Below, piece after piece: positions 6,553-12,431 of a DNA stretch of 64,000 nucleotides (position 1 is the first letter of the stretch; each line of letters begins with the position of its first letter). The position numbers and the translations under genes were made by a program. This stretch comes from Deltaproteobacteria bacterium. Its GTDB lineage: Bacteria > Myxococcota > Myxococcia > Myxococcales > Anaeromyxobacteraceae. The notes below the pieces were generated by a model, which saw only the letters and a program-made list of their open reading frames with translations, was not told the origin of the DNA and did not search any database. The stretch covers positions 558,001-622,000 of the forward strand of contig JACRMN010000012.1 of NCBI GenBank assembly GCA_016214955.1, given 5' to 3'.

Positions 6553-8607
6553 TTAAGCCCGGGCGAAGTGCCGGTTCAAGCCATCCTGGCACCCCTCCGC
6601 GGGCGTTCCCACCCCGTCACCCTGGGACTCCACCCGGAAGCTCCCCACCAGCTCCTCCAGGGTCCGGGCCTCTCCGGCCAGGCGCTCGGCGGTGGTGGTG
6701 GACTCCTCCGAGACCGAGCTGTTGGAGATGGCCACGCGCGAGACCTCCTCGAGCGAGCCGGCCAGCTCGGCGAACCGGGACGAATGGCCGCCGGTGTCGG
6801 AGGCGATCTGGGAGACGATCTCCGAGACCTCGGCGATGCCGTGGGCGATCTCCTGGAGCTGCACCGCCACCGACTGGGCGGTGCCGGCGCCGGCCTCGGC
6901 CTGCTTCACCGACTCGCGGATGAGCTGCTCGGTCTTCTGGGCCGCCCCCTTGGAGCGCAGCGCCAGGGACCGCACCTCCTCGGCGACCACCGCGAACCCG
7001 CGCCCCGCCTCGCCGGCCCGCGCCGCCTCCACCGCGGCGTTGAGGGCCAGGAGGTTGGTCTGGAAGGCGATCTCGTTGATGTCGCGGATGATCTGGGAGG
7101 TGCCCTCCGCCGAGGCGCGGATCTGGGCCATGGCCCCCTGCATCTGCGCCATGGCCTTCTCGCCCAGGGCGGCGCGCCCGCGGGCCGCCTGTGCCAGCCT
7201 GTCGGCTCGCTGGGCCTCGTCGCTGGCCTTCTTGGAGCCGGCGGCGAGCGCATCGGCCGAGGCGGTGGCGCGGTCGATGGCGCTGGCCTGGGCGTCGGCG
7301 CCGCTGGAGAGCTTCTGGCTGGTGGAGGAGATCTGCGCGGCTGCCTCGCTGAGCTGCCGGACGGCGCTGGCCAGCGGGCCGATGGCCTCGGACAGCGCCT
7401 CGGCGGTGCCGTTGACCGCCTGCTGGAGCGCGGCGTGGTCGCCGCGGAAGTCGCCCTCGACGCGGGCGGTGAGGTCATGGGCCGCCAGCCGCGCCAGCTC
7501 GCGCGACGAGGCGGCGACCGGGGCCAGCACCGCGTCGAGGGTGTGGTTCACGCCCTCGACGATGCGGCGGTACTCGCCCTGGTGGGCGGACGGCTCGGCC
7601 CGGGCCGAGAGGCGCCCCTCGACGGCCGCGGCGGCCAGGGCCCTGGCGTCGGAGGCCAGGTGGCGCACCGCCTCGACGCACCGGTTCAGCGACTGGCGGA
7701 TGGTGTCCAGCTCGCCGCGGAAGGCCTCGGCCAGCGGCGCGGGCAGGTCGCCGCGGGAGACCCTGTCCAGGGCCTCGCGGATGAGCTGCAGCGGCCCGAT
7801 GAAGGTGTCGAGGGTGTGGTTCAGGCTCTCGAGCACCGGGCGAAACTCGGGCACCACCCGCGTCGGGTCGCCGCGGACATCGAGCCGGCCCTCGCGGGCC
7901 ACCGCCTCGGTGACCCGGCTGGTCTCCTCCGAGACCGCGCGCAGGCTGGAGGAGATGCGGCGGGCCACCAGCAGCGAGACCGTCGCCGACACCGCCACCA
8001 GCGCCAGCACCAGCAGCACCACCACCACCGAGAGCCATCGCACCCGGGCGGTGGCCCCGTCCTCCTCGGCGGCGATGCGGGCGCGGACCGCCTGGATCAC
8101 CGCCGCGTTGGCCTGCCTGTGGCGGGCGAAGGCGGCCTTGGCGGAGTCGAGCGCCTTGAGCGCCGCCATGGCGTCGCCGTCGGACATGGCCTTCGGCAGC
8201 GCCGTGCCGGCGGCCTCGAAGAACTCCAGCGCCGGCCCGGCCGCCGCCTCGATGAGCCCCCGCTCCGGGTCGCCGGCGGTGAGCGAGGCGCGGCGCGCCG
8301 CCAGCCGCTCCTCGAAGGCCTTGCGCTCCGCCTGCAGCTCCGCCACCAGCGGGGCCCGCTTGGCCTCGTCGTACTCCTGGGCCAGCCGCTGCAGGACGGT
8401 GTAGGCCTCGACGGCGTAGAGCGCCGGGGGCGCCACGTCGGCCACCAGGTCCTTGCCGGCGGCGATGCGCTCGTAGAGCGCGCCGCGGATGCGCACCGTC
8501 GAGATGGGCAGGAAGGAGACGAGGAACACGGTGACCAGCCCGCCGACGTAGACGGCGGTGAGCAGCTGCAGCGTGCGGGCGAAGGTCAGGCGATCGAGGC
8601 GAAGCAT
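6553..8607 (-). CDS. Methyl-accepting chemotaxis protein with periplasmic sensor and HAMP-like repeats
   Basis: 684 aa from ATG 8607, preceded by GGGGAT; an upstream in-frame start (8724) would precede the promoter described below and adds only low-complexity residues. TM1 is at ~14-34 and TM2 at ~205-230, flanking a helical periplasmic domain. After TM2 come HAMP and two further HAMP-like segments (two SLNHTL/GVNHTL copies). The signalling hairpin tip reads [35 protein letters not shown], the canonical receptor motif. Ligand unknown. No C-terminal CheR-docking pentapeptide is seen. Followed by the hemerythrin gene after 10 bp. Confidence 0.92.
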
Positions 8608-8630
8608 TGGAAATCCCCATTTCGAGAGAC

Positions 8631-8648
8631 GCCGGCGGCGCCGCCGGC
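8631..8648. repeat. 18-bp perfect GC palindrome in the receptor 5' leader
   Basis: A self-complementary 18-bp sequence (half-site GCCGGCGGC) lies just after the predicted sigma-54 start site and ~23 bp before the receptor start codon. It could be an operator or an RNA hairpin in the leader. In such GC-rich DNA chance cannot be excluded. Confidence 0.4.
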
Positions 8649-8660
8649 CCTGGCTCCCTG

Positions 8661-8676
8661 CGCAAGGGTCGTGCCC
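8661..8676 (-). promoter_or_regulatory. Sigma-54 (-24/-12) promoter of the chemoreceptor gene
   Basis: On the minus strand the sequence GGGCACGACCCTTGCG matches the RpoN consensus TGGCACG-N4-TTGCW at all core positions (GGCACG, TTGC), with the invariant GG at 8675-8674 and GC at 8663-8662, 12 bp apart. The predicted transcript starts near 8650, leaving a leader of about 43 nt before ATG 8607. An NtrC-type activator would be required; none is adjacent. Confidence 0.7.
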
Positions 8677-8763
8677 CGGAAGGCGGGGCGGGTGCGCGGC
8701 GAAAGGGGCGGTTGACGCGGACATCCGGCGCGCGGTGCGCGGCGGCGGCGGGGTGCGGGGCGC

Positions 8764-8802: not shown

Positions 8803-9270
8803 TCAGGGGGCGGCGGCGCCGAAGAGCCCCTCGATGGCGCGGGCCAGGGCCGGCGCCTGGCGCTCGCGGGCCGGGGCCACGAACACGGTGTCGTCGCCGG
8901 CGATGGTGCCGAGGGTCTCCGGCAGCCGTGCCAGGTCGATGGCCCGGGCCACCGCCGGCGCGCTGCCGGGGTGCGTGCGCACCACCACCAGCGAGCCGTT
9001 GCAGGACACCTGCGAGACGAGGCCGCGGAGCACCGGCACGCCGTCGCGCCGCTCCTCCTCGGGGAGCTCGTAGCGGCCGCCGCCCGGCGCCGCGGCCCGC
9101 CGGGCGCCGAGCCGGGCCAGGTCGCGCGACAGCGTGGCCTGGGTGGCGGCGAAGCCGGCGCGGCGCAGGAGCAGGAGCAGCTCCTCCTGCGTGGCCACCG
9201 GCTGCTCCCGGAGGATGCGGGCCACGGCCTCGCGGCGCCGATGCGGCGGCTGGCGGCCCCGCTCCCTCAC
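8803..9270 (-). CDS. argR: Arginine repressor ArgR
   Basis: 155 aa, the usual ArgR length. N-terminal winged helix (residues ~10-70, with ATQEELLLLLRRAGF and TQATLSRDLARLG as recognition region), then the C-terminal arginine-binding/oligomerisation domain containing GTIAGDDTVFVA, the conserved GTIAGDDT site. ArgR hexamers bind ARG boxes with arginine as co-repressor. The GTG start overlaps the argJB stop as GTGA, so it is last gene of the arg operon and probably translationally coupled. An ARG-box-like operator lies upstream of argC, so the operon is likely autoregulated. Confidence 0.93.
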   Translation of the reverse strand: MRERGRQPPHRRREAVARILREQPVATQEELLLLLRRAGFAATQATLSRDLARLGARRAAAPGGGRYELPEEERRDGVPVLRGLVSQVSCNGSLVVVRTHPGSAPAVARAIDLARLPETLGTIAGDDTVFVAPARERQAPALARAIEGLFGAAAP

Positions 9271-11396
9271 GCGCCGGCCCCCGCGGTGCTGCCCACCGGC
9301 AGGCGGGTGACCAGCGTGCCCACGCCACGGTCGGTGAAGAGCTCGGCGATCACCGTGTGGGGCGTGCGGCCGTCGAGGACGTGCACCCGCTCCACGCCTC
9401 CCTCCAGCGCCGCCAGGATGGCGCGGGCCTTGTGCTTCATGCCGCCGGTGAGCGAGCCGGCCTCCATGCGCCGCACCAGGTCGGGGGCGGTGACCTGGCG
9501 GACCAGCTCGCCGTCGGGCGCCGACTCGAGGATGCCGGGCACGTCGGTGAGGTAGATGAGCTTCTTGGCACCGAGTGCCGTGGCCACCGCCGCGGCCACG
9601 TCGTCGGCGTTGATGGAGAGGCTGCCGCCGTCCTCACCGAGGGCGATGGGCGAGATCACCGGGACGTAGCCGCCCTGCAGCAGCATGCGCAGGAACTCCT
9701 GGTTCACCTCGGTGATCTCGCCGACGTGGCCCAGGTCGCGCCCGCTCTCGTGGGACTTCTTGCGGGCCCGCAGGAGCTGGCCGTCCTTGCCCGAGACACC
9801 CACGGCGCCGGCGTTGCGGGCGTTGAGCAGCGCCACCAGCTCCTGGTTCACCTTGCCGGAGAGCACCATCTCCACCACCGGCAGGCTCTCGTCGTCGGTG
9901 ACCCGCAGGCCGTCGACGAACTCGGAGCGCTCGCCCATGCGCTCCAGGGTGCGGGTGATCTCCTGGGCGCCCCCGTGGACCACCACCGGCTTCAGCCCCA
10001 CGCGCTTCAGCAGCGTCACGTCCTCGGCGAAGGCGGCCTTGAGGCTGTCCTTCACCATGGCGGCGCCGCCGTACTTGATGACCGCGATCTGGCCGGAGAA
10101 GGCGGAGATGTACTTCAGGGCCTCGACGATCAGGGTGCGCTTGAAGGCCGGGCTGTAGTTGGCGACCCGGTCCTCCTTGGTGACCATCCCGTCCTTCTGC
10201 TGCACGATCATCGAGGTGTAGTCGGCGTTGATCTTCACGTAGTCGTAGCTGAGGTCGCAGCCCCAGGCCACGGCGCGGGCGGCGCCGTCGGCGAGTTGCA
10301 CCAGCACGTCCACCCGCGGCTCGCGCATCTTGGCCTTGAGCGCCTCGCGGTCGATGTCGAGGGGCGCGCCGTTGCCGAAGACCGCCACGCCCTGGAGCGC
10401 CACCCGGGCGCGGAACGGGTCCACCGGCCAGCCCTGCGAGCCGGCGCGGGCGCCCACCGTGGAAAGCACCCGGCCCCAGTTCGGGTCGGCGCCGAAGAGG
10501 GCGGCCTTCACCAGCGGCGAATGGGCGATGGAGCGGGCCAGGTCGCGGGCCGCGGCCTCGGAGGGCGCGCCCTCCACCACCACCTCCACCGAGCGCGTGG
10601 CCCCCTCGCCGTCGGCCGCCACCGCCCGGGCCATCTCGCCGAAGAGGTCGGTGAGGGCGTTCACCAGCACCTCGAGGTCGGGACCGGGCTCGGCGATGCG
10701 GGGGTTGCCGCAGAGGCCGTTGGCCAGCACCAGCACGCAGTCGTTGGTGGACATGTCGCCGTCCACCGTCACCATGTTGAAGGTGGAGGCCACCGACCGG
10801 ACCACCGCCTCCTGCAGCAGCCTGGGCGTGACCGCGGCGTCGGTGGCCACCAGGCAGATCACCGTGGCCAGCTGCGGGGCGATCATCCCCGAGCCCTTGC
10901 AGATGGCCGAGATGGTGGCCGCCTTGCCGCCCAGCACCACCTCCCGGGCCGAGAGCTTGGTCCGGGTGTCGGTGGTCATGATGGCCTCGGCGGCCTGGTC
11001 GGCCCGGTCGCCGAGCTGCTCCACGAGCTGAGGCACCGCCGCCACCACCTTCTGCACCGGGAGCCGGGCGCCGATGACGCCGGTGGAGGCGGTGAGCACC
11101 GCCCGCTTCTGGATGCCCAGCGCCCCGGCCACCGTCCCGCGGATCACCTGGACGTCGGCCAGTCCCTCGGGGCCGGTGAGGGCGTTGGCGTTGCCGGAGT
11201 TGGCGACGATGGCCCGCATCCCCTCGGCGGGCACCCGCGGGCGCGCGTCCTGCACCGGCGCGGCGCTGGCGGTGTTGGCGGTGAAGACGCCGGCGGCGGC
11301 GGCCGGCACGTCGGAGACGATGAGCGCCAGGTCGCGGCGCGCCGGCTTGAGGCCGCTTGCCACGCCGGAGAAGCGGAAGCCCCGGGGAATCTTCAT
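9267..11396 (-). CDS. argJB: Bifunctional ArgJ-ArgB fusion: ornithine acetyltransferase + acetylglutamate kinase
   Basis: 709 aa in one uninterrupted frame. Residues 1-395 are a complete ArgJ, ending with DYVKINADYTS as ArgJ proteins do; self-cleavage should occur at Ala177-Thr178 in KGSGMIAPQLAT, giving an alpha chain and a beta chain. Residues ~415-700 are a complete ArgB: AVIKYGGAAM (phosphate loop), VVVHGGAQEI, VSGKDG, SINADDVAAA and LTGGMKHKA. ArgB is usually encoded separately, so the processed product would be an ArgJ alpha chain plus an ArgJ-beta/ArgB chain. HGGA replaces the usual HGGG. Together they transfer acetyl groups to glutamate and phosphorylate acetylglutamate. The gene abuts argC (no gap) and overlaps argR. 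Confidence 0.9.
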   Translation of the reverse strand: MKIPRGFRFSGVASGLKPARRDLALIVSDVPAAAAGVFTANTASAAPVQDARPRVPAEGMRAIVANSGNANALTGPEGLADVQVIRGTVAGALGIQKRAVLTASTGVIGARLPVQKVVAAVPQLVEQLGDRADQAAEAIMTTDTRTKLSAREVVLGGKAATISAICKGSGMIAPQLATVICLVATDAAVTPRLLQEAVVRSVASTFNMVTVDGDMSTNDCVLVLANGLCGNPRIAEPGPDLEVLVNALTDLFGEMARAVAADGEGATRSVEVVVEGAPSEAAARDLARSIAHSPLVKAALFGADPNWGRVLSTVGARAGSQGWPVDPFRARVALQGVAVFGNGAPLDIDREALKAKMREPRVDVLVQLADGAARAVAWGCDLSYDYVKINADYTSMIVQQKDGMVTKEDRVANYSPAFKRTLIVEALKYISAFSGQIAVIKYGGAAMVKDSLKAAFAEDVTLLKRVGLKPVVVHGGAQEITRTLERMGERSEFVDGLRVTDDESLPVVEMVLSGKVNQELVALLNARNAGAVGVSGKDGQLLRARKKSHESGRDLGHVGEITEVNQEFLRMLLQGGYVPVISPIALGEDGGSLSINADDVAAAVATALGAKKLIYLTDVPGILESAPDGELVRQVTAPDLVRRMEAGSLTGGMKHKARAILAALEGGVERVHVLDGRTPHTVIAELFTDRGVGTLVTRLPVGSTAGAGA

Positions 11397-12431
11397 CTAG
11401 CCCCCCAGGAGATCGAGCCCGAGGGTCTCGTCCCAGCCCATGGCGCAGTTGAGGGCCTGGACCGCCTGGCCGGCGGCGCCCTTCGTGAGGTTGTCGATGG
11501 CCGAGACCGCCACCGCGGCGCCGGCCCGCTCGTCCACCGCCAGCCCCAGGTGGGCGCGGTTGGTGCGGACCACGTCCTTGACCGCCACCTTGTCGGCGGC
11601 CAGCAGGCGCACGAAGGGCTCGCCGGCGTAGGCGCCGTTCCAGGCGGACTGGAGCGCCGCGGCGCTGGCGCCGGGCAGGAGCCGCAGGGCGCAGGTGGCC
11701 AGGATGCCGCGCCGGATCGGCACCAGGTGGGGCGTGAAGGAGATGGGGCCGCAGCGCCCGGCGAAGCGGCGCACCGTCTGCTCGATCTCGGGCACGTGCT
11801 GGTGGCGGGCCAGCCGGTAGGCGCGCAGGTCCTCGTCGACCTCGCAGAAGCTGTAGTCCTCGCTGGCCTTGCGGCCCGCGCCGGAGACGCCGCTCATGGC
11901 GGAAACGGCGATGCCTTCGGCGGCCACCAGCCCGCTCTTCACGAGCGGCGCCAGCGCCAGCGCCGTGGCGGTGGCGTAGCAGCCGGGGTTGGAGACCAGG
12001 CGCGCGCCCCGGAGCCTCTCCCGCTCCAGCTCCGGCAGGCCGTAGCGGGCCTCGGCCAGGGCCGCCGCCTGGCCGTGGGTGAAGCCGTACCAGGCCGGGT
12101 AGAGGGAGGCGTCCTCGAGCCGGAAGGCGCCGGAGAGGTCGACCACCCGCAGGCCGCGGGCCAGGAGCTTCGGGCCCAGCTCCAGGCTCACCTCGGCCGG
12201 CGTGGCCAGGAAGGCGATCTCGGCCTGGGTCGAGGCGGCGTCGGCCAGGGCCGAGTACCGCAGCGCCGCGGCCGGGCCGCCGAGGGGCAGCCGGTCGCCG
12301 GCCGCCTCCTGGGCCCAGCGGTCGGAGTACAGCGAGACCAGGCGCAGCCGGGGGTGGCGGGCGGCGTAGCGGGTCAGCTCCAGGCCGGAGTAGCCCGAGG
12401 CGCCCACGATCGCGATGGAATGTTCATGCAT
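11397..12431 (-). CDS. argC: N-acetyl-gamma-glutamyl-phosphate reductase ArgC
   Basis: 344 aa. NADP-binding N-terminus (IAIVGASGYSGLEL), catalytic Cys151 in VSNPGCYATA, and the C-terminal HQHVPEIEQ segment of type-1 ArgC enzymes. It reduces acetylglutamyl phosphate, the product of the ArgB half encoded immediately downstream. First gene of argC-argJB-argR. The ATG is the only sensible start (MHEHSIAIVGASG) and lies only ~2 nt from the transcription start predicted from the promoter, so the message may be leaderless. Confidence 0.94.
   Translation of the reverse strand: MHEHSIAIVGASGYSGLELTRYAARHPRLRLVSLYSDRWAQEAAGDRLPLGGPAAALRYSALADAASTQAEIAFLATPAEVSLELGPKLLARGLRVVDLSGAFRLEDASLYPAWYGFTHGQAAALAEARYGLPELERERLRGARLVSNPGCYATATALALAPLVKSGLVAAEGIAVSAMSGVSGAGRKASEDYSFCEVDEDLRAYRLARHQHVPEIEQTVRRFAGRCGPISFTPHLVPIRRGILATCALRLLPGASAAALQSAWNGAYAGEPFVRLLAADKVAVKDVVRTNRAHLGLAVDERAGAAVAVSAIDNLTKGAAGQAVQALNCAMGWDETLGLDLLGG

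What the first reader, a model, noticed from the sequence alone, without database searches (positions are those of the whole stretch)
9267..11396. ArgJ and ArgB fused in one 709-residue protein
Both halves are complete and in one frame; the ArgJ self-cleavage site (Ala177-Thr178) is intact, so the beta chain would carry the kinase. Thus argC-argJB give three consecutive steps in two genes, which might allow hand-over of acetylglutamate. The kinase site has HGGA in place of HGGG.
Basis: seen in the sequence. Interest (0 to 1): 0.55.

Follow-up and report, generated by a model that had tools for sequence, protein, structure and literature searches.

The report
Ornithine acetyltransferase fused to arginine sensor
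Many soil bacteria of the myxobacterial group make two arginine-synthesis enzymes as one protein, and comparison of relatives suggests the second half is kept mainly because it senses arginine, with its own kinase chemistry lost in several lineages.

Summary
The fusion is real, but on the minus strand: window 9267-11396, 709 aa, ArgJ (9-395) plus acetylglutamate kinase (437-675), in an argC-argJB-argR operon. It is no sequencing error: 77 near-full-length fusions occur in 76 of 195 genomes of the phylum. The ArgJ cleavage site is kept (Ala 77 of 77; nucleophile Thr 63, Ser 14).

The unexpected result lies in the kinase half. Six arginine-binding positions are kept in 77 of 77, but all 11 kinase positions in only 14; 24 (including the window) differ only by HGGG->HGGA; 39 have lost 2-8. 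Where the kinase is broken, a separate ArgB2 is usually present (36 of 39); 58 of 60 scored ArgB2 keep all 11 kinase positions and 0 of 60 the arginine site. Where it is intact, the fusion is usually the only ArgB found (11 of 14).

Best reading: the fused domain is an arginine sensor on ArgJ, convergent with N-acetylglutamate synthase; the window's protein is an intermediate that may still be a working kinase. Arginine control of ArgJ is inferred, not shown. The link with ArgB2 is not significant after tree correction.

The parts
9267..11396 (-). argJB, 709-aa ArgJ-NAGK fusion (ATG start, TGA stop)
10212..11372 (-). ArgJ domain, residues 9-395 (Pfam PF01960)
   Evidence: model blocks mostly pLDDT 78-98 apart from the block holding the cleavage site (59); nearest solved fold 1vz8/1vz6
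10863..10868 (-). ArgJ self-cleavage site Ala177|Thr178
   Evidence: Ala in 77 of 77, Thr 63 / Ser 14 of 77; solved ArgJ beta chains align from 178
10152..10211 (-). Linker between the halves, residues 396-415, low model confidence
10104..10151 (-). N-helix of the kinase half (modelled helix 416-431); arginine-site residues Tyr429 and Phe433 (Tm Y15, F19) lie at and just after its end
9372..10088 (-). Amino acid kinase (NAGK) domain, residues 437-675 (Pfam PF00696)
   Evidence: nearest solved NAGK folds 2buf, 2v5h, 2bty (arginine-controlled NAGKs)
9966..9977 (-). HGGA, residues 474-477 (HGGG in ordinary NAGK)
9315..9344 (-). Arginine-binding motif ELFTDRGVGT, residues 685-694
   Evidence: (motif in PMC4490483)
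11397..12431 (-). argC (N-acetyl-gamma-glutamyl-phosphate reductase), upstream in the same operon
   Evidence: argC found upstream of 75 of 77 fusions, within 150 nt in 71
8803..9270 (-). argR (arginine repressor), overlaps the argJB stop by 4 bp
   Evidence: argR found downstream of 60 of 77 fusions

Best explanation
The gene encodes a self-cleaving ornithine/glutamate acetyltransferase (ArgJ) whose beta chain carries an arginine-binding acetylglutamate kinase (NAGK) domain. The property of the fused domain kept throughout the family is arginine binding: arginine would bind between the N-helix and the C-terminal loop and change the domain, and through the covalent link and the shared oligomer turn down ArgJ. 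Kinase chemistry is optional: it is kept where the fusion is the only NAGK, and has decayed in several lineages that mostly also carry a separate, arginine-insensitive ArgB2. The window's protein is in between: 10 of 11 kinase positions are intact, the third glycine of HGGG is alanine, and a complete ArgB2 exists elsewhere in the genome, so it may be a working but redundant kinase plus a sensor. Shown from sequence: the fusion, its conservation, the kept arginine site, the lost kinase positions, the make-up of ArgB2. Inferred: that arginine binds, that it acts on ArgJ, and that the HGGA kinase still works.
For: 77 near-full-length fusions (76 of 195 genomes). Six arginine-site positions (T. 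maritima Y15, F19, K196, E266, G272, G274) kept in 77 of 77; the seventh (T275) is T in 44 and S in 33. Kinase positions: all 11 kept in 14, only HGGA changed in 24, 2-8 changed in 39. Of 74 columns in which all 14 intact fusions carry the T. maritima residue, 44 fall below 95% in the broken set, but 0 of the 6 arginine columns; arginine-site region 10 kept / 3 lost against 20 / 41 elsewhere (Fisher p 0.005). ArgB2: 58 of 60 keep all 11 kinase positions, 0 of 60 the arginine site. ArgB2 found with 36 of 39 broken, 22 of 24 HGGA and 3 of 14 intact fusions. In f2/f7 genomes a TIGR00761 search found only the fused ArgB over the cut-off. In 10 of 38 genomes with a broken kinase, six of them at least 90% complete (G103, G104, G140, G144, G145, G162), the fusion is the only ArgJ found and those six have ArgB2: fused ArgJ must work there while its kinase half cannot. 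Key ArgJ residues (oxyanion T-G, K, E, N) kept in 77 of 77. The broken Archangium domain still models as a NAGK fold nearest 2buf/2v5h/2bty. Arginine site and its effect on attached acetyltransferases: PMC2566978, PMC4490483.
Against: No experiment shows arginine binding or ArgJ inhibition. Interdomain geometry is not defined by the models (pTM 0.61 and 0.63, linker pLDDT near 50). The association with ArgB2 fails as a tree-corrected test: 2-3 independent pairs on supported branches, median p 1. Calling rows 'broken' by catalytic changes makes the loss of catalytic columns partly circular; only the retention of the arginine columns is independent of the definition. The arginine site could also be kept because arginine inhibits a still-active kinase in the intact and HGGA groups. 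G068 (98% complete) has a broken kinase and no ArgB2 found. In 14 of 77 the ArgJ nucleophile is Ser and nearby ArgJ positions have changed too.
Confidence: 0.55

Rival explanations
1. Plain bifunctional enzyme: both halves are fully active, the fusion gives equal expression and perhaps passes acetylglutamate from ArgJ to the kinase. Arginine inhibits the kinase as in other cyclic-pathway bacteria.
For: In f2 and f7 (11 fusions) all 11 kinase positions are kept and no other ArgB is found, so the kinase is very probably active there. In the window 10 of 11 positions are kept. Separate argJ and argB genes lie next to each other in 71 of 80 loci of the genome-contig scan, with a gap of 0-75 nt where measured, so fusion by loss of a stop is easy.
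Against: 39 of 77 fusions keep the fused domain but not its kinase residues. Nothing supports channelling; no interface is predicted. The window genome has a second, complete ArgB.
Confidence: 0.3
2. Decaying duplicate: the fusion is being replaced by a second, arginine-insensitive set (ArgJ2, ArgC2, ArgB2); the kept arginine motif is just slow decay or structural need.
For: The window genome has ArgJ2, ArgC2 and ArgB2; ArgJ2 or another second ArgJ is present in many fusion genomes. One second fused copy in G091 (L085) looks degenerate.
Against: In 10 of 38 genomes with a broken kinase no second ArgJ was found, yet the fused ArgJ keeps its oxyanion, lysine, glutamate and asparagine positions (77 of 77). 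The kinase half does not evolve clearly faster than the ArgJ half within clades: ratio 0.51-1.31 over seven clades, 0.73 in the Archangium-type clade and 0.97 in the largest broken clade against 0.71 in the intact f2 clade. Neutral decay would not spare all six arginine positions in 39 of 39 broken rows.
Confidence: 0.12
3. Regulation runs the other way or outward: the arginine-binding half acts as a scaffold or partner (for example for ArgB2, ArgC or a PII protein) rather than on ArgJ.
For: NAGK partners are known (PII in plants and cyanobacteria, the yeast NAGK-NAGS metabolon; PMC3329491). The nearest folds include PII-NAGK complexes 2v5h and 2jj4.
Against: No partner was looked for or found here; the covalent link is to ArgJ.
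Confidence: 0.08

Closest known systems
Classical and vertebrate-like N-acetylglutamate synthase (NAGS, ArgA)
   Same: An amino-acid-kinase domain that binds arginine, in classical NAGS without kinase activity, joined to the enzyme that acetylates glutamate; same arginine motif E-(L/I)-(F/M)-(T/S)-x-x-G-x-G-T (PMC4490483 passage)
   Different: The acetyltransferase here is ArgJ (self-cleaving, unrelated fold) at the N-terminal side, not a GNAT domain at the C-terminal side
Bifunctional NAGS/K of Xanthomonas and Maricaulis
   Same: One polypeptide for glutamate acetylation and acetylglutamate phosphorylation, arginine-sensitive (PMC2566978, PMC4490483 passages)
   Different: GNAT domain instead of ArgJ; opposite domain order
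Arginine-sensitive hexameric NAGK (P. aeruginosa, T. maritima ArgB)
   Same: Kinase half aligns over its full length with 2buf and 2bty, N-helix and arginine site kept
   Different: Here the N-helix is preceded by ArgJ and a linker; HGGA in the window, catalytic loss in 39 of 77
Ornithine acetyltransferase ArgJ (S. clavuligerus 1vz6, M. tuberculosis 3it4)
   Same: Full ArgJ domain with cleavage site
   Different: Chain continues past the usual C-terminus into a kinase domain
Other arginine-pathway fusions: ArgH(A) of Moritella and relatives; yeast Arg5,6
   Same: Pathway enzymes joined in one chain (PMC1382215 passages; Arg5,6 named in the PDB list)
   Different: Other enzymes joined

Membership tests
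ArgJ (ornithine acetyltransferase) | Full-length ArgJ domain over curated cut-offs | tested here: met
   PF01960 456 bits, NF003802 452.6 (cut-off 351), TIGR00120 407.7 (cut-off 298)
ArgJ (ornithine acetyltransferase) | Self-cleavage site with N-terminal nucleophile of the beta chain | tested here: met
   Ala177-Thr178 in the window; Ala 77 of 77, Thr 63 / Ser 14. Cleavage itself not testable here
NAGK (ArgB) | argB equivalog domain over cut-off | tested here: met
   TIGR00761 242.1 bits, cut-off 151.3
NAGK (ArgB) | Catalytic and substrate residues (E. coli K8, G10, G11, H42, G43, G44, G45, R66, N158, D162, K217) | tested here: inconclusive
   10 of 11 in the window, third Gly of HGGG is Ala; roles of G11, G45, K8, K217, D162 from PMC3329491, N158 and R66 from PMC2851564; the other four positions are my choice by conservation
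NAGK (ArgB) | Phosphorylates acetylglutamate | not testable with these tools
   needs an assay
Arginine-sensitive NAGK/NAGS | N-helix with aromatic residues plus the C-terminal arginine motif and the beta-sheet lysine | tested here: met
   Six positions kept in the window and in 77 of 77; motif
NAGS (AAK domain + GNAT acetyltransferase) | GNAT domain fused C-terminal to the AAK domain | tested here: not met
   Only ArgJ and AA_kinase domains found in the 709 aa; works like NAGS at most, is not one
NAGS | Acetyltransferase activity controlled by arginine | not testable with these tools
   needs an assay

The most novel reading that the evidence does not exclude
ArgJ was placed under direct arginine feedback by capturing a NAGK as a covalent arginine sensor, which then lost its kinase chemistry several times (at least five changes of the label on the tree) in lineages that mostly carry an arginine-insensitive ArgB2: a convergent re-invention of the N-acetylglutamate synthase design on an unrelated acetyltransferase fold, moving the control point of the cyclic arginine pathway from the kinase to ArgJ.
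Probability: 0.45. Interest if true: 0.75.

Novelty: new variant of a known kind. Interest (0 to 1): 0.6.

Why it matters
In the cyclic arginine pathway the control point is described as arginine on NAGK and/or ornithine on ArgJ (PMC3827942 passage; PMC3329491 passage). An ArgJ with its own arginine-binding domain would be a different wiring, and the family offers a natural series from active kinase (fusion is the only ArgB found) through HGGA to broken kinase, in which the change of a catalytic domain into a regulatory one can be tested step by step. Why NAGS carries a dead kinase domain is an old question; here the same outcome seems to have arisen separately with another enzyme.

Tried and rejected
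Sequencing error or frameshift joining two genes: rejected, 77 near-full-length homologous fusions. Independent argB start at codon 396: not conserved, not fully excluded for the window. HGGA as a unique oddity of this protein: rejected, it is in all 23 rows of the window's family f1 and in one f17 row. Tree-corrected test of kinase loss against ArgB2: not significant. A GNAT search for a short NAGS in the window genome gave 18 unspecific hits and was not resolved, so whether the fused ArgJ must itself prime the pathway from acetyl-CoA is open. Relaxed rate in the kinase half: no clear sign.

Rows left out: one search aligned 77 of the fused rows; left out were L083 and L089 (cut by contig ends), L088 (starts inside), L168/G139 (partial) and L084/G057 (frame broken). 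The seventh arginine position (T275) was left out of the 'six kept' count because T and S both occur. In one search the ArgB2 count covers L099-L158 (60 rows, one of them, L124/G010, from a genome without the fusion); the fragments L159 and L160 were left out. In one search three ArgB2 (G071, G110, G151) were counted as present from fragments.

Paper searches for an ArgJ-ArgB fusion: (open-licence PMC only). None of the listed titles and abstract starts names it; I read search listings and passages, no whole paper. One search hits for 'argJB' lie mostly in Staphylococcus papers and were not opened. A published description in a subscription journal is not excluded, and genome annotation of Anaeromyxobacter may already show the two domains.

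Full report
What is there. The reported coordinates hold one open frame of 709 codons on the minus strand, ATG at 11396, stop at 9267. Residues 9-395 match ArgJ and 437-675 the amino acid kinase family, each nearly full length, and both equivalog models pass their cut-offs. The gene sits in a tight minus-strand operon: argC (11397-12431) directly before it, argR (8803-9270) overlapping its stop by 4 bp. The ArgJ cleavage site Ala177-Thr178 is intact and solved ArgJ beta chains align from residue 178. The kinase motif is HGGA.

It is a conserved gene, not an error. A search of 195 genomes of the phylum found matches in 160. From the places fetched, 77 near-full-length fused proteins from 76 genomes were aligned; partial or interrupted fusions in five more genomes (G026, G070, G139, G148, G057) were left out. 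argC lies upstream of 75 of 77 fusions, within 150 nt in 71, and argR downstream of 60 of 77. A scan of a wider genome collection returned 80 loci: 9 fused, all in Myxococcota or Deltaproteobacteria records including Polyangium fumosum, and 71 with separate neighbouring argJ and argB genes, mostly Clostridia. The fusion therefore probably arose by joining adjacent genes of an argCJB operon (inference).

The kinase half. I scored 11 kinase positions and 7 arginine-site positions against T. maritima and P. aeruginosa NAGK. Published roles cover K8, G11, G45, D162 and K217 (PMC3329491, passage), N158 and R66 (PMC2851564, passage), and the arginine motif, lysine and N-helix (PMC4490483 and PMC2566978, passages); the remaining kinase positions were added by me because they are conserved. 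Result: six arginine positions are kept in 77 of 77 (the seventh is T in 44 and S in 33), while all 11 kinase positions are kept in 14, only the third Gly of HGGG is Ala in 24, and 2-8 are changed in 39. In those 39, N158 is kept in 0 and R66 in 3, so acetylglutamate binding is very probably gone. On a tree of the ArgJ half (trait columns left out) the label 'broken' needs 5 changes and the three labels together 6; many branches there are weakly supported.

The second ArgB. The window genome has another argC-argB pair (L003) and another argJ (L002). ArgB2 lacks the N-helix and the arginine motif. Over 60 ArgB2 rows, 58 keep all 11 kinase positions and 0 keep all six arginine positions; the two exceptions have HGAG. 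ArgB2 was found for 36 of 39 broken, 22 of 24 HGGA and 3 of 14 intact fusions. In the f2 and f7 genomes with intact fusions, a family search found no other ArgB over the cut-off. The three broken cases without ArgB2 are G068 (98% complete), G143 (88%) and G152 (85%). The tree-corrected pair test has only 2-3 usable pairs and is not significant, so the association is descriptive. Separate arginine-sensitive ArgB genes of relatives without the fusion, such as L162 and L163, carry both sites, and G010 and G163 have a separate arginine-sensitive ArgB beside ArgB2, so ArgB2 can coexist with an intact NAGK.

Is the fused ArgJ needed? In 10 of 38 genomes with a broken fused kinase no other ArgJ was found; six of these are at least 90% complete and all six have ArgB2. 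The ArgJ oxyanion pair, the lysine, the glutamate and the active-site asparagine are kept in 77 of 77 (which residues matter is recalled from ArgJ structures). In one clade of 14 the nucleophile is Ser, with further ArgJ changes, which I cannot explain.

How it most likely works. ArgJ cleaves itself, the beta chain carries the NAGK-like half, and the protein assembles through both the ArgJ contacts and the N-helices of the NAGK half (inference from the known oligomers). Arginine binds at the kept site, as in NAGK and NAGS, and through the covalent link lowers ArgJ activity (inferred). Where the domain is still an active kinase, arginine would also inhibit that. AlphaFold models of the window and Archangium proteins have confident domains (mean pLDDT 89.2 and 88.4) but an ill-defined linker and relative placement (pTM 0.61 and 0.63), so no contact between the halves can be claimed. 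Both kinase halves match arginine-controlled NAGK structures better than E. coli NAGK: 2buf at 45% and 44% identity, against 1gs5 at 28% and 25%.

Place among known things. NAGS and NAGS/K combine an arginine-binding kinase domain with a GNAT acetyltransferase; this protein combines one with ArgJ, in the opposite order. It fails the defining GNAT feature of NAGS, so it is not a NAGS, but it may work like one. Seven searches of the open PMC library listed no paper naming an ArgJ-ArgB fusion; subscription papers and genome annotations were not covered.

Limits. All conclusions on function are from sequence. Broken/intact was defined on the catalytic positions, so only the retention of the arginine positions is an independent result. 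Genome incompleteness affects each statement that a gene is absent.

Noticed in passing
L002:1363-2676 (G000:C26 near 450 kb): Second, stand-alone ArgJ (437 aa, about 42% identical to the fused one over 13-351) in the window genome; relatives at 69-83% identity occur through family f1 and at about 65% in Archangium-type genomes. Role unknown.
   Followed up: partly
L003:1426-3358 (G000:C16): Second argC-argB pair; this ArgB2 lacks the N-helix and the arginine motif.
   Followed up: yes
L062-L080 group (14 fusions, genera g17, g26, g32, g39, g40): ArgJ nucleophile Thr is Ser and VDGD is VDGE in the clade whose kinase reads LGR...HGE; the ArgJ half may have changed function too.
   Followed up: no
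L085 (G091:C66, about 326-328 kb): A second fused copy in one genome with many odd residues at conserved places (YDSVRLNSDHGS, HVG); possibly a decaying or specialised duplicate.
   Followed up: no
L084 (G057:C4): Fusion whose frame changes near the HGG motif and whose kinase part continues in another frame; assembly error or a true split, not resolved.
   Followed up: no
L208-L278: In Clostridia, Treponema and one Cyanobacteria record argJ and argB are separate but directly adjacent, with 0-75 nt between the stop and the found argB start, the likely layout before fusion.
   Followed up: partly
f6 genera g19, g21, g33 (for example G076, G094, G121): Several large genera of the same family have no fusion and only a separate ArgB: arginine-sensitive in the two read from g19 and g33 (L162, L163), ArgB2-like in the one from g21 (L161); the fusion seems to have been lost there.
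   Followed up: partly
window 6553-8724 (-): A frame just downstream of argR whose translation looks like a methyl-accepting chemotaxis protein; recognised by eye only.
   Followed up: no
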